NCBI GenBank assembly: GCA_011390635.1
Contig: JAABSA010000017.1
Span: 299-64,298 of the forward strand
Length of the DNA stretch: 64,000 bases
Source: Desulfotignum sp.
GTDB lineage: Bacteria; Desulfobacterota; Desulfobacteria; Desulfobacterales; Desulfobacteraceae
Direction of reading: 5' to 3'
A program made the position numbers and the translations under genes. The notes below the pieces were generated by a model. It saw only the letters and a list, made by a program, of their open reading frames with translations. It searched no databases and was not told the DNA's origin. This document shows positions 2,856-29,959 of this stretch, in pieces (the stretch's first letter is position 1; each line of letters starts with the position of its first letter).

Positions 2856-3010
2856 ACTGATATGGTCGATTCGTTCAGGGATGGTGGTTGTAAGAGGGTT
2901 GAAATTTGGATAAATATGTAATTCTTTGCTGAATCTTACAAGAATCCAATTTAAAACCTGTTCAGTTGTTCGGAGCCGTGATAAATGTTCAAATAATCAA
3001 GGGGAAAACG

Positions 3011-3328
3011 ATGAGAGTAGCTATGGTAGTCAGCCAGAACACCCCAGAGGTGGTTTGGAATGCTTTTCGACTGGCAAATATTATGCTTGAAGAAATGGAC
3101 GATGTCAGCATTTTTCTTAACGGCCCCAGCGTTGAATATGAAAAATTTGATTCTGATCAGTTTTCATTAAAGGAACTGGCAAAAATATTTACCCTTTCAG
3201 AGGGTAATCTGTTCGCTTGAGGCAAATTAATGGACCTTCACGGCGTGAAGGAAGGATATCACAAGAGAGCGACCCAGAAAAATTTATATGATCTAATCAA
3301 AGAGAGTGATAAAATAATTTCATATTAA
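3011..3328 (+). CDS. DsrE-like family protein, candidate selenoprotein (in-frame TGA at 3218-3220 read as Sec; 105 aa)
   Basis: Frame continues through TGA: ...SEGNLFA-U-GKLMDLHGVKEGYHKRATQKNLYDLIKESDKIISY*; SD-like AAGGGG upstream; hairpin CCTTCAC-GGC-GTGAAGG 14 nt after the TGA. Confidence 0.7.
3235..3251 (+). promoter_or_regulatory. Candidate bacterial SECIS hairpin
   Basis: 7-bp perfect stem CCTTCAC/GTGAAGG, loop GGC starting with G, loop begins 22 nt after the TGA. Confidence 0.6.
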
Positions 3329-3545: not shown

Positions 3546-4601
3546 TTATCGTACGAGCCTATTTTTATGCTGATAATCTTCACAGCCGCAGGTGGATGCC
3601 ATATGGGATTTATAGTCCGCCTCTGTTAATGACCACCACTTTTCATCCAGAGGAGCATCTACAAATGGTGATATGTGATTGCTGAGAAGTTTTCCGGTGG
3701 TATATTCCTGGTCAAAAATAATCTTATTATCAGGGTCATTTAACCTCTTTTCGATTAATTTTTTTCCAGTTGCAAGATTTTTATTGGTGCTATCGGAAAA
3801 CATCACATTCAATGAATAAATTTGGACGTCATCTGTATCGACACATTGATATCCCTCGGTTGAATCATATATATATTTAAACCCTGGGCTGCATGTCAGC
3901 AGAACCCTTACTGGCTTTATTTTGCTGTAAAAAGAATATAGGGAAAGTAGACAGCTGAAAAGCGGATATCCCAAGTCATATCCTGGCACATCCCTTGCTT
4001 TTTCTCCAAGGTTAAAATATTTGCTTTTGTTGAGTTCAGGATATGTCTGATGAAATGCCTGGCTATAAAAGACCTGCATGGAATCCAAAGCCTCAAGTGA
4101 AAAGAGTGCCAAATTATCTGTTGTATCCATAATCATTTCAATGGCTGCCACGTTAAACAGGGAGGCGGGTATCCGGTCTCTTTGCTCTAACCTTGGTGTG
4201 TGCGTATCATCGAAAAGATTACTCTTGACAAAGGCCTGCTCTTCAAAAGAAAAGTGATTAAAAAACCGCCCATTGGTAAAAGGATAATATTTTACACTAA
4301 ACAGCCCGCCCGCCAAGTGCTTGCTCTCCCATAGGTCGTCAATGGTTTCATTTAATTCTAAAGAATAGGCTCCGTCAGTTTGAGGCATCCAGAAATACCA
4401 AGCCGGTTTGTCGCTCCACACAGGGCTTACGGCTTGAAGGCCGATGAGTTCCTTTACCTTGTCAACCCAGGAGGTGGTGACCAGCATATTGTCTATTTTA
4501 TTGCGAAACAGGCTCTGAAGATCGATATCAGTATCCTCCGTTTTTTTCAAAAAGTTCTTTGATGATGTCTTTTTTGTCCCGCCCGTCAATCGGTATTCCA
4601 A
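3546..4601 (-). CDS. Conserved hypothetical protein (start uncertain, 4601 or 4487)
   Basis: Long ORF downstream of membrane protein and 90-aa ORF in same orientation; overlaps the 90-aa ORF if started at 4601. Confidence 0.6.
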   Translation of the reverse strand: MEYRLTGGTKKTSSKNFLKKTEDTDIDLQSLFRNKIDNMLVTTSWVDKVKELIGLQAVSPVWSDKPAWYFWMPQTDGAYSLELNETIDDLWESKHLAGGLFSVKYYPFTNGRFFNHFSFEEQAFVKSNLFDDTHTPRLEQRDRIPASLFNVAAIEMIMDTTDNLALFSLEALDSMQVFYSQAFHQTYPELNKSKYFNLGEKARDVPGYDLGYPLFSCLLSLYSFYSKIKPVRVLLTCSPGFKYIYDSTEGYQCVDTDDVQIYSLNVMFSDSTNKNLATGKKLIEKRLNDPDNKIIFDQEYTTGKLLSNHISPFVDAPLDEKWWSLTEADYKSHMASTCGCEDYQHKNRLVR

Positions 4602-4800
4602 GCTGACGGGCGGTTTCTATCAATATTTCATCGGGGTAGGCCAGGGTCAGCGCATAACTGGACTCATAGGAATCAAAATATTCATCAAATTCCTGTTTCT
4701 TCTTTGCCTCTTTGATGCCTTCATCAAAACCGGAAAGGATTTTACCAACCTCACCTAAAAAACAGTTCTTGAAAAAACCTCTTTTGTTTTTATCAATCAT
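4528..4800 (-). CDS. Small hypothetical protein
   Basis: 90-aa ORF overlapping the end of the upstream membrane protein gene (4793). Confidence 0.55.
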   Translation of the reverse strand: MIDKNKRGFFKNCFLGEVGKILSGFDEGIKEAKKKQEFDEYFDSYESSYALTLAYPDEILIETARQLGIPIDGRDKKDIIKELFEKNGGY

Positions 4801-6055
4801 TTAAACCCGTTCCCCTGTCTTTTTTTAGAGGCCAGCCTTCAAAAAAATCACAGTGTACAGCAATAATACTTAAAAAAAGGATGGTCCATACCAGAGGGGT
4901 ATCGTCCGGCTGGGCAATGCCGGGGACCTTGCCAAGGAAAAAGACAGTGGCATTTGAATAATAGAAAAGATAAACAAGCGCTCCACCGACAATAGCAAGA
5001 AGAGTTCGGACGATTGCATTCAGCCATATAGAGTTTGTATTGGGGAAATTGTTAAAGTAATTTTTTAAAATAAAGGCGGACAGAATCAAAAAACCGCTGA
5101 TTTCAGCCGCATGGAGAAACCTGAAATCCGGACCGTCAGTATATTGACCGCCCATGAACGGCTCGTCCCAGAAATAAATCATGCCTTTAAGTAGAATCCA
5201 GAGCAGAATGATTCCTAAAATGGTGGTCACAATAAAAACAAAGAGTCCCCTTAAAAAATTTCCCCCATCTTTTTTTGCAAGGAGTTTGAATGGATAGCCT
5301 TCCCATAGCAGATCAGATGAAACAGCCCAGAAAAGGGCACACAGCAGCAGGCCCAGACTGAAATTGGCGCTGCCGGTATCTGCAAAAGATATCCACCAGG
5401 GTTCAACACCGGCATTTACTTGGGCCGGATAAAAAAGATGGCATACACTTGCATGAAACAATACCGTATAAGCAATGACAACAAAAAAAAGGATGGTGAA
5501 CAGGCGGCTCCATGCCTGGACACTCCGATCATTTTTTTGCCATGGCCATCGTCCAAACCCGGCACTCCAAGTTATGGTAATCCATAAAAATGCGGCGAAA
5601 AAATACAGAATGGCCCTGCTGGATATCTCCCGGGCGTTCCAAATCTCAGCCCCCTGACTGCCTGCAGCAATGATGGAGTATGGGCTGAAATACGTGATAC
5701 CGAATTCACCGAGAAATTTCCAGAAAACAACGTAATATAAAAACAACATCAGGACAACAGCAGTGATTGTCAATAGAATTCCTCTGATCAGGACACTCTG
5801 GTCCGGGGGCGTTTTTTCCGCAAACGGGTAAAATTCAAAAATATCCTTGATGATTAGAATGGCGGAAAAAAAAACAACCACCAATGAGAATCCATACATG
5901 GGTGTATAAAGCCTAAAAATTCCGTCGGCATGCATAAAAATATACCATAAAAGCCAAACAATACAGAAAATGGCAACAATATTTACCAGACCCATAATAT
6001 AATTGAACCTGTTTTCCAATGGTGAATCTGTTTCCATAATAATTCTGTGCTCCAT
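4793..6055 (-). CDS. Polytopic membrane protein with repeated YPF/WPW/WPL motifs
   Basis: Many hydrophobic segments; FEFYPF, FGRWPW, WEGYPF, FEGWPL recur at about 100-aa spacing. Confidence 0.7.
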   Translation of the reverse strand: MEHRIIMETDSPLENRFNYIMGLVNIVAIFCIVWLLWYIFMHADGIFRLYTPMYGFSLVVVFFSAILIIKDIFEFYPFAEKTPPDQSVLIRGILLTITAVVLMLFLYYVVFWKFLGEFGITYFSPYSIIAAGSQGAEIWNAREISSRAILYFFAAFLWITITWSAGFGRWPWQKNDRSVQAWSRLFTILFFVVIAYTVLFHASVCHLFYPAQVNAGVEPWWISFADTGSANFSLGLLLCALFWAVSSDLLWEGYPFKLLAKKDGGNFLRGLFVFIVTTILGIILLWILLKGMIYFWDEPFMGGQYTDGPDFRFLHAAEISGFLILSAFILKNYFNNFPNTNSIWLNAIVRTLLAIVGGALVYLFYYSNATVFFLGKVPGIAQPDDTPLVWTILFLSIIAVHCDFFEGWPLKKDRGTGLND

Positions 6056-26872: not shown

Positions 26873-28414
26873 GTGCAGTTGTTTTTGTGGTATTGCCGGT
26901 ATCAGAAAATAATGTATATCCATATGGATTTAACGGCAAAGGAGGCAGCAGACATGATCCATTCGAAAGCGACCAGTGAGCGGCGGCCGTACATGCGGAT
27001 TCTGGCCGATGACCAGGTCTTTGAGATTCGGCGGGCCGCCTTTGACCTGATGTTCAGTGTGGGGTTCAAGGTGCTTCATCAGGGGGCCCGGCAGATGCTG
27101 CAAAAAGCCGGGGCTGTGGTGGATGGTCAGCATGTCAGGGTGCCGGAATTCATTGTAAAACAGTGTCTGACAACAGCCCCCAACGGGTTCACCCTGTATG
27201 ACAGAAACGGGAATCGGGCCCTGGAGGTAGAGGGCCGTAAAAGCTATTACGGCACCTCCACCGGCAGCCCCAGAACCAAAGATGCCGGAACCGGAGAGAT
27301 CCATCCCACCACTGTGGCGGATATCGGCATCGGGGCAAAAGTGGCGGATGCCTGTGAAAACATCGACTGGGTCATGCCCATGGGATCCTGTCAGGATGTG
27401 CCATCCATTGCCGCTGACCTGTATGAGTTCGAGGCGGTGGTGACCAATACCGTAAAACCCATAGTGTTCATCGGGTATTCGGGCCGGGGAACACAACTGG
27501 TCCTGGAAATGGCGGCAAAGGTCGCCGGGGGTATGGACAAGCTGCGGCAAAAACCCTTTCTTGCACTGTATCCGGAACCTATCTCTCCTCTGGTGCAGCC
27601 TGCGGAAACGGTGGACCGGATTTTTGCGGCAGCAGATCATTTTATCCCCCAGGTGCCGGGACCTGCCGTACAGATGGGGGCGACAGGTCCCATGACCATG
27701 GCCGGTGTCATCACCCTGATCACAGCGGAATCTCTCATGTGCCTGGTGCTGGCACAGCTGCGCCAGCCCGGCTGCCCGGTGTGCCTGAGCGGCAATGTCC
27801 AGATTCTGAACATGTCCTCCGGCGTGTTCGGGGTGGGATATCCGGAGATGAGCCTGGGGATATCCGCCCAGGCGGAAGTGGCCCGGTCTTTTGACCTGCC
27901 CACCTGGGGATATGCCGGGTGCACCGATGCCAAGGTGGTGGATGCCCAGGCCGGACTTGAAAGCGGATTTTCCATCATCACCCAGGCCCTTGCCGGGCTC
28001 AACCTCATCCATGATGTGGGATACCTGGACCAGGCCATGGTGTGTTCGGCAGCCCAGCTGGTGCTGGGCAACGAGGCCGTGGGCATGGCAAAAAAATTCA
28101 TGGAAGGCATCCGGGTGGATGCTGCAACCATTGCCAGAAATGTGATTGCAGATGTCGGACCGGGCGGCCATTTTCTGGCCCACCGGCACACCGTGGACCA
28201 TTGCCGTACCGCAGTGTGGGGTTCACGGCTGCTGACCAGAGAACCCTATGAAACCTGGCAGGCCAAAGGAGAAAAAGATATGGCCCGGCGGATTCAGGAT
28301 CGGTTGATGGATATTTTGGACCATCATAAGGTGGCACCGCTGCCGGAAAAGGTGCTGACCGCCATGGCGGACATCCGGGAAGCCGGGGTCAAAGAGCTGA
28401 CCGCCGGAAAATAA
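26873..28414 (+). CDS. MttB-family (trimethylamine methyltransferase superfamily) protein, non-pyrrolysine
   Basis: DLMFSVGFKVLHQGARQMLQKAGA...; TSTGSPRTKDAGTGEIHPTTVAD; no in-frame TAG; true start may be internal. Confidence 0.85.
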   Translation: MQLFLWYCRYQKIMYIHMDLTAKEAADMIHSKATSERRPYMRILADDQVFEIRRAAFDLMFSVGFKVLHQGARQMLQKAGAVVDGQHVRVPEFIVKQCLTTAPNGFTLYDRNGNRALEVEGRKSYYGTSTGSPRTKDAGTGEIHPTTVADIGIGAKVADACENIDWVMPMGSCQDVPSIAADLYEFEAVVTNTVKPIVFIGYSGRGTQLVLEMAAKVAGGMDKLRQKPFLALYPEPISPLVQPAETVDRIFAAADHFIPQVPGPAVQMGATGPMTMAGVITLITAESLMCLVLAQLRQPGCPVCLSGNVQILNMSSGVFGVGYPEMSLGISAQAEVARSFDLPTWGYAGCTDAKVVDAQAGLESGFSIITQALAGLNLIHDVGYLDQAMVCSAAQLVLGNEAVGMAKKFMEGIRVDAATIARNVIADVGPGGHFLAHRHTVDHCRTAVWGSRLLTREPYETWQAKGEKDMARRIQDRLMDILDHHKVAPLPEKVLTAMADIREAGVKELTAGK

Positions 28415-28510
28415 ATCTGACCAAACAAACTACCCGGTGTGAAAAACACACGGGTGTGAAAAATGCATGAAGAGAAGACAGGATAGATCCATCATGCAAA
28501 AGAGGGGATC

Positions 28511-29959
28511 ATGACCGACCCGCTGCCGGCACCACAGACACCGGCATATGAAACACTGGAAAAACTGGACCACATGGCCCGGCAGATACTTGAACAGATC
28601 GGCATCCGGATTTTAAGCCGGCCGTTTCTTGCGCTGTTGTCTGAAAAAGGGCTGTCCGTCACAGAAGACCGGGTGGTTTTTTCGCCGGACCAGATCACCA
28701 CCCTGCTGGCACGGGCCCCTGAAAACTTTACCCTCTACGCTGTCAATCCTTCCCATGACATCACCATCGGCAGCGGCCCGTCCAGGCTGGCTGCAGGATA
28801 CGGGTGCGCGTCGGTCATGGACCCGGACGGCAACCTTCGGGGGGCGATTTTCCAGGACCATGTGGACCTGGTGAAACTGGTGCACACAAGTGAGCTGTTC
28901 CACATCAACGGCGGCATCCTGGCCCAGCCATCTGACGTGGACCCGGACTCCAGCCACCTGGCAATGATGTATGCGGCCCTGAAATATTCAGACAAATGCA
29001 TTTTCGGGATCCAGTGCAACCGGCAGCGGATGGAAGAGATCATGGCACTCGCAGCCATCCGGATAGGGGGCAAAGAGGCCCTGGTCCACACCCCCCGGGT
29101 GCTGACCATGATCAGCCCGGTCAGTCCGCTCCAGGCAGATCAAACCGGACTGGAGGCCCTGGATGTGGCAGGACAGTATCACCAGCCCGTGATTATTTCT
29201 CCGGGGGTGGCAGCCGGCACCACCGGCCCCATAGATCTTGCCGGCAATGTTGCCATGGCCGCGGCAGAGGCCCTGGGGCTTATCATGATCGCCCAGACCC
29301 TGCATCCGGGCACCCCGGTTGTTTTCGGTCTCCAGTGCTACGGGTCTGATATGAAAACAGGCAATATCTCCATCGGGTCCCCGGCCTATGCCCTCCAGGC
29401 AAAATACTGCGCAGCCCTGGCCCGGTATTATCATCTGCCCAGCAGGGCAGGGGGTGCGACCACTGATGCCCGAAACCTGTCTGCCCAGGCAGGGTATGAA
29501 AGCATGCTGTCCATGTTCACGGCCATGCAGAACCAGGTGAGCCTGATTGTGCACAGTGCCGGGATTCTGGACAGTTTTGCCGCCATCTCCTTTGAAAAAT
29601 TCATCATGGACCTGGAGATCATCCAGATGATCCGGTTTTACATGGATGACATGACAGTGGATGACACCACCTTGAACCTTGATCTGATTCGGTCGGTGGG
29701 GCCGGGGGGGCTGTTTTTGACCACCATGGACACCATGAAAAAATGCAGAACCCATTCCTGGAATCCCGCAGTGGCTCTGCGAGGCAATCTCATGAACATG
29801 TCGCCTGGTGAAAAATTTGTAAAAAATATCCAGGATACCCGGGAGCGGATGCTGGCACAATACCGGCAGCCGGAAATTGATCCGGCTGTATTGAAAAATA
29901 TGGATGATTTCATGCACCAAAAAGGGGTGGACCCTGATACCCTGCCGTTGTATTATTAA
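28511..29959 (+). CDS. MttB-family protein, second paralog
   Basis: [45 protein letters not shown]; same fold signature, divergent sequence. Confidence 0.85.

What the first reader, a model, noticed from the sequence alone, without database searches (positions are those of the whole stretch)
3011..3328. Candidate DsrE-like selenoprotein hidden by an in-frame TGA, with an adjacent SECIS-like hairpin
Seen: the ORF track ends this gene at TGA 3218-3220, but the same frame continues for 35 codons to TAA 3326-3328 with coherent DsrE-like sequence: MRVAMVVSQNTPEVVWNAFRLANIMLEEMDDVSIFLNGPSVEYEKFDSDQFSLKELAKIFTLSEGNLFA-U-GKLMDLHGVKEGYHKRATQKNLYDLIKESDKIISY. The TGA sits where DsrE-like relatives carry Cys in an 'xACGxC' motif. 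A perfect 7-bp hairpin CCTTCAC-GGC-GTGAAGG starts 14 nt after the TGA; its loop begins 22 nt after it and starts with G, within the published bacterial SECIS rules (from memory). Established: DsrE-like selenoproteins have been reported and sulfate-reducing deltaproteobacteria are often selenoprotein-rich. Inference: this is a real selenoprotein. In contrast to a random nonsense mutation, the distal frame is intact and the TGA replaces a Cys.
Basis: partly seen in the sequence, partly recalled or inferred. Interest (0 to 1): 0.9.

Follow-up and report, generated by a model that had tools for sequence, protein, structure and literature searches.

The report
DsrE-like selenoprotein with lone selenocysteine
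A short gene that looks broken by an early stop codon is almost certainly an intact selenoprotein gene: more than 35 related bacterial genes keep the same stop codon and the same RNA hairpin that recodes it to selenocysteine, in a sulfur-handling protein fold, although the protein has never been tested.

Summary
ORF 3011-3328 has one in-frame TGA (3218-3220), followed by a 7-bp hairpin with apical loop GGC. All full-length orthologues found across many Desulfobacterota families keep this TGA. No Cys form exists among the 38 rows of the inner clade, whereas outside it the same column is Cys (ACGKC, ACGTC, and haloarchaeal ACGTC). The six codons of the hairpin stem have the highest synonymous conservation in the gene. 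The stem shows real covariation: one pair occurs as CG, AU, UA and GC, another as UA/CG at the price of a Lys-to-Glu change. The frame after the TGA is under purifying selection (dN/dS about 0.1). The genome has selA, selB, a Sec-type selD and a Sec-type fdhA. tRNA-Sec was not found in this 96%-complete assembly, but 13 of 14 relatives have it. The fold is DsrE (pLDDT 98), with Sec70 at the strand-to-helix active site. DsrE-like selenoproteins (UxxC) are already published. What is new is a widespread subfamily with UGKL, which lacks the second Cys and probably lost it twice. Proposed function: single-selenol sulfur-transfer or redox protein (inferred). Sec insertion itself is not shown experimentally.

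The parts
3011..3328 (+). dsrE-like selenoprotein gene (105 aa with Sec70), ATG to TAA
   Evidence: orthologues 70-84% identical over the full length with the same TGA
2999..3004 (+). ribosome-binding-site-like AAGGGG, 6 nt before the ATG
   Evidence: read in sequence; most orthologues have AGGAG/AAGGGG-like stretches at a similar distance
3218..3220 (+). in-frame TGA read as selenocysteine 70
   Evidence: TGA in 17/17 orthologues; aligned to Cys in ACGKC/ACGTC homologues
3235..3251 (+). bacterial SECIS upper stem-loop: 7 bp CCTTCAC/GTGAAGG, apical loop GGC (3242-3244)
   Evidence: 98.5% of cells paired in 38 distinct rows, 24 cells changed on both sides, 0/500 shuffles as high; highest synonymous codon conservation in the gene

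Best explanation
The gene encodes a small cytoplasmic DsrE-fold selenoprotein. Shown by sequence comparison: the TGA is kept by selection, a SECIS hairpin just downstream is kept by compensatory change, the frame beyond the TGA is under purifying selection, and the host has SelA, SelB and SelD. Inferred from established biology: SelB binds the hairpin and delivers Sec-tRNA to the UGA, giving a full-length protein with Sec70 at the DsrE active-site position (end of a beta strand, start of a helix). Inferred function: because no second Cys is kept nearby or anywhere else in the protein, the selenolate acts alone, as a carrier of sulfane sulfur (Sec-bound persulfide, or thiosulfonate as in DsrE3A) or as a one-selenol reductase, and is resolved by a partner thiol such as a TusA/DsrC-type protein or the thioredoxin system. 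The identity of the substrate and partner is open. The confidence given is for the selenoprotein reading; for sulfur carrier rather than redox enzyme it is about 0.55.
For: TGA at the same column in all full-length orthologues. Stem covariation: pair 19-33 CG/AU/UA/GC and pair 21-31 UA/CG. Codons 75, 77, 79, 80 and 81 have codon identity 1.00 and codon 76 0.78 against 0.43-0.49 elsewhere, while loop codon 78 varies freely (0.35). dN/dS about 0.08-0.11 on both sides of the TGA. Cys homologues at the column; Cys homologues mostly lack the hairpin. selA, selB, selD with its own TGA, fdhA with TGA. All 64 genomes with a TGA form have selA, and the one matching genome without selA (G374) carries a Cys form. 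DsrE fold: pLDDT 98 and top PDB matches all DsrE-fold; YchN match by profile. Sulfur context in a few relatives: TauE beside it in L028 and L035, sulfide-dehydrogenase-like flavoprotein in L029, trxB-like and arsR-like genes upstream in L112.
Against: No tRNA-Sec found in this assembly. The protein alone is below Pfam's DsrE cut-off (18.1 against 22.7 bits). Two same-genus relatives hold only 5' fragments and one distant genome has a 1-nt deletion before the TGA, so the gene is not essential. No conserved operon and no conserved partner, so the sulfur-transfer function rests on the fold and a lone active-site residue.
Confidence: 0.9

Rival explanations
1. A pseudogene: the TGA is a recent nonsense mutation in a decaying DsrE gene.
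For: Truncated copies exist in two same-genus relatives and a frameshifted copy in G187; many relatives lack the gene.
Against: The identical TGA in every full-length orthologue over many families, dN/dS about 0.1 after the TGA and stem covariation cannot arise from a recent nonsense mutation.
Confidence: 0.02
2. The TGA is a true stop and the 69-aa product is the protein; the downstream frame is conserved for another reason, such as a regulatory RNA.
For: The hairpin is conserved as RNA.
Against: The downstream 35 codons are conserved as protein with synonymous drift outside the hairpin, complete the DsrE fold and match Cys homologues that are read straight through. Without the read-through no Pfam domain is detected.
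Confidence: 0.02
3. A Sec-containing redox enzyme (peroxide or disulfide reductase-like) rather than a sulfur carrier.
For: Most known bacterial selenoproteins, including DsrE-like UxxC, are grouped as thiol-based oxidoreductases (PMC1088965, PMC13188914); a thioredoxin-reductase-like gene lies upstream in L112.
Against: The second Cys of the UxxC motif is lost, probably twice, which does not fit an internal selenenylsulfide cycle; the fold is that of sulfur-transfer proteins.
Confidence: 0.35

Closest known systems
DsrE-like selenoprotein family, UxxC (Sargasso Sea, Desulfovibrio vulgaris; PMC1088965, PMC1794560, PMC13188914)
   Same: DsrE fold, Sec at the active-site column, downstream SECIS, Deltaproteobacteria
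   Different: The published motif is UxxC. This subfamily has UGKL and none of the downstream Cys-Pro of the UGVC group. In the tree, the UGVC clade is separated from the UGKx clade by Cys lineages
YedF (TIGR03527, selenium-metabolism SirA-DsrE fusion)
   Same: DsrE domain with CGxC at the corresponding place; weak NCBIfam matches of 5 relatives; a yedF-like gene lies next to selD in this genome
   Different: No SirA domain, Sec instead of Cys, stand-alone gene
DsrEFH / TusBCD and DsrE3A sulfur carriers
   Same: Same fold (2HY5), one active-site chalcogen residue
   Different: No DsrF/DsrH or TusA partner genes recognised nearby; Sec instead of Cys; sequence similarity only through distant profiles
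E. coli YchN (1JX7)
   Same: Best sequence-profile match in the PDB over the whole length, its CKTC aligned to UGKL
   Different: Cys protein with CxxC

Membership tests
bacterial selenoprotein | in-frame UGA conserved in orthologues | tested here: met
   17/17 close orthologues and all 38 rows of the wider inner clade
bacterial selenoprotein | bSECIS stem-loop 16-37 nt downstream with G in the first two apical-loop positions | tested here: met
   loop GGC starting 22 nt after the UGA; rule from PMC13188914; covariation
bacterial selenoprotein | Cys-containing homologues at the Sec column | tested here: met
   L076 ACGKC, L093-L096 and others, haloarchaeal ACGTC
bacterial selenoprotein | host has selA, selB, selD | tested here: met
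   601, 342 and 370 bits, all over cut-off
bacterial selenoprotein | host has tRNA-Sec (selC) | tested here: inconclusive
   not found in the 98-contig, 96.4% complete assembly; present in 13 of 14 relatives
bacterial selenoprotein | Sec shown in the protein | not testable with these tools
   needs 75Se labelling or mass spectrometry
DsrE/DsrF family PF02635 | Pfam gathering score | tested here: not met
   18.1 bits against 22.7 for this protein; 23 of 27 aligned relatives match at E<=0.01, best E 2.8e-12
DsrE/DsrF family PF02635 | DsrE fold | tested here: met
   AlphaFold pLDDT 98, six PDB matches at E<=0.001, all DsrE-fold
published DsrE-like selenoprotein (UxxC) | UxxC motif | tested here: not met
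   UGKL here; the sister lineages are UGKC
YedF | N-terminal SirA-like domain | tested here: not met
   105-aa single-domain product; no such match
DsrEFH/TusBCD complex subunit | adjacent partner subunit genes | tested here: not met
   no DsrF/DsrH/TusA-like neighbour recognised in the window or in relatives' neighbourhoods; most neighbours were judged by eye, not profile-scanned

The most novel reading that the evidence does not exclude
The UGKL clade is a distinct class of one-selenol DsrE proteins in sulfate reducers: it gave up the resolving Cys at least twice while never giving up Sec, and works as a Sec-based sulfane-sulfur (or selenium) carrier rather than as a UxxC redox enzyme.
Probability: 0.4. 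Interest if true: 0.65.

Novelty: new variant of a known kind. Interest (0 to 1): 0.5.

Why it matters
The gene is missed or truncated by ordinary gene calling, yet it recurs across many families of sulfate-reducing and related bacteria. It extends the DsrE-like selenoproteins from the published UxxC motif to a lone-Sec form. It also gives a clean natural data set of a bacterial SECIS inside a coding region, in which RNA pairing overrides codon choice and in places the amino acid. If Sec70 carries sulfane sulfur, it would be a selenium-based sulfur relay, which could be tested directly in vitro.

Tried and rejected
Pseudogene and true-stop readings were rejected by conservation, dN/dS and covariation. 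Single-sequence folding energy alone was not convincing (z -1.6), so comparison was used instead. tRNA-Sec was searched with a covariance model, a degenerate pattern and a relative's DNA, none of which found it in the own assembly; the covariance-model matches checked there were ordinary tRNAs. A conserved operon was looked for and not found: only the window and Desulfosarcina alkanivorans were seen to share neighbours. The 2007 Olavius selenoproteome paper was not held, so whether a UGKL form was listed there is unchecked. Profile search of the narrow alignment against the PDB found nothing; the wider alignment found YchN. The first structure model had a poor loop after Sec70; the wider alignment fixed it.

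Full report
Check of the observation. The hairpin CCTTCAC-GGC-GTGAAGG lies at 3235-3251, its loop beginning 22 nt after the TGA. RNA folding gives exactly this stem, -8.7 kcal/mol, but the energy alone is unremarkable for this composition. Without read-through no Pfam domain is seen; with it, DsrE (PF02635) is matched over the full length at 18.1 bits, below the curated 22.7.

Orthologues. In the family of the host, six other genomes hold full-length relatives, 72-78% identical, and every one has one TGA at the same place. A scan of GTDB genomes added Desulfosarcina alkanivorans (complete genome), Desulfopila aestuarii, Desulfobacula, Desulfotignum, several Desulfobulbaceae, an MAG filed as Desulfohalobiaceae and an Olavius algarvensis symbiont; all copies that reach this position have TGA. 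A profile search over 395 genomes of the phylum gave 75 genomes with a match, 64 of them with a TGA form. All 64 also have selA, against 355 of 395 overall; the single matching genome without selA (G374) carries a Cys form (lists compared by eye). The base rate of selA is high and the genomes are related, so this is supporting evidence only.

Column 70. In a 27-row alignment that spans the whole set, column 70 is Cys or Sec in every row. Motif classes are UGKL (this gene), UGKC, UGVC with a downstream Cys-Pro, CGKC, CGTC and a few singletons. Haloarchaeal DsrE proteins have ACGTC. In the tree, 38 rows of the inner clade are all Sec, with one CGKC row just outside, and UGVC is a second Sec clade separated by Cys rows; at least three Sec/Cys changes are forced by well-supported branches. 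Within the inner clade UGKL appears in two separate places among UGKC rows, so the second Cys was probably lost twice. With 106 columns the tree is coarse.

SECIS. Codon by codon over 15-17 close orthologues, the six stem codons 75, 76, 77, 79, 80 and 81 have the six highest synonymous identities of the gene (1.00 for five, 0.78 for codon 76), whereas the loop codon 78 is free (0.35) and the averages elsewhere are 0.43 (codons 1-69) and 0.49 (codons 83-105). Across 38 distinct rows 98.5% of stem cells are paired; pair 19-33 (T of TGA = 1) occurs as CG, AU, UA and GC; pair 21-31 as UA and CG, where the 3' change turns Lys80 into Glu or another residue; pair 23-29 as AU, GC and GU. None of 500 shuffles reaches the observed pairing, the number of double changes or the covariation score, and slid structures fall to 39-56% paired. 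RNAalifold finds the same stem unaided. Cys homologues mostly do not keep the stem: L076 keeps 6 of 7 pairs and L095 5, the others 2-4. The geometry fits the published bacterial SECIS rule (PMC13188914). The UGA regions of selD and fdhA in the same genome also fold into stems with G-rich apical loops.

Selection. Nei-Gojobori dN/dS is about 0.09 before the TGA and 0.08-0.11 after it; many pairs are saturated at synonymous sites, so these are rough.

Machinery. The genome has selA (601 bits), selB (342 bits), selD with its own in-frame TGA (370 bits) and a formate dehydrogenase alpha with TGA (852 bits). tRNA-Sec was not found by covariance model, pattern or DNA similarity, while 13 of 14 relatives have a clear one at 73-77 bits. 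I take this as a gap in a 96.4%-complete, 98-contig assembly; this is inference.

Fold and mechanism. With the 27-row alignment the model has pLDDT 98 and places residue 70 at the end of a strand (66-70) just before a helix (71-77). The six PDB matches at E<=0.001 are all DsrE-fold proteins, including DsrEFH; YchN is the best sequence match, with its CKTC aligned to UGKL. DsrE-type proteins carry sulfur on one active-site Cys; DsrE3A was shown to carry thiosulfate (PMC4175335). The closest context signals are sulfur-related but scattered: TauE/SafE beside the gene in L028 and L035, a sulfide-dehydrogenase-like flavoprotein in L029, and a thioredoxin-reductase-like gene then an ArsR regulator upstream in L112. 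I therefore favour a one-selenol sulfur carrier or reductase that needs a partner thiol. The recoding is well supported; the function is inference.

Counter-evidence. Two same-genus relatives hold only the first 52 or 30 codons, joined to unrelated sequence, and G187 has a 1-nt deletion just before the TGA. The gene is thus dispensable or mobile in the genus, but the breaks do not involve the TGA.

Novelty. DsrE-like selenoproteins with UxxC were reported from the Sargasso Sea in 2005, from Desulfovibrio vulgaris in 2006, from the Global Ocean Sampling set in 2008, and are listed in a 2026 review as predicted with high confidence (PMC1088965, PMC1794560, PMC2398784, PMC13188914). In the held papers I read I found no UxxL form of DsrE; the Olavius paper could not be read. 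The finding is a new variant of a known kind.

Noticed in passing
window 26873-28414 and 28463-29959 (+): Two neighbouring genes that look like MttB-family methyltransferases (judged by eye) without an in-frame TAG in their body; an Rfam PYLIS_3 match (27920-28019, 39.0 bits, just over the cut-off of 38) lies in the first, so that match is probably the ordinary coding sequence of a non-pyrrolysine relative.
   Followed up: partly
L024:1501-1657, L041:4001-4090 (same genus), L080 (G187): Broken copies of the gene: two 5' fragments joined to unrelated sequence and one 1-nt deletion before the TGA.
   Followed up: partly
L112, L115, L123, L124 upstream of dsrE: An ArsR-type regulator precedes the gene in four lineages (UGKL, UGKC, CGKC, UGKS forms), in L115, L123 and L124 with one or two small unnamed ORFs between. 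ArsR was confirmed by Pfam for L112 and L115 only; the other two were judged by eye.
   Followed up: partly
window 3546-4601 and 4793-6055 (-): Two unnamed genes without Pfam match whose homologues also lie beside the orthologue in Desulfosarcina alkanivorans (L028 5730-6836 and 6952-8184), the only shared neighbourhood found.
   Followed up: no
L119 and L120, about 0.7-0.8 kb downstream of dsrE: A selB-like gene lies close to the selenoprotein gene in two genomes (judged by eye).
   Followed up: no
L101:1939 onwards (G469): A DsrE-like frame with UKKA, Sec without a second Cys, placed beside a CGTA row: possibly another independent lone-Sec origin.
   Followed up: no
G063 L061 and G062 C1:529912-529999: A second, weaker tRNA-Sec match (56-58 bits) in two same-genus genomes.
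   Followed up: no
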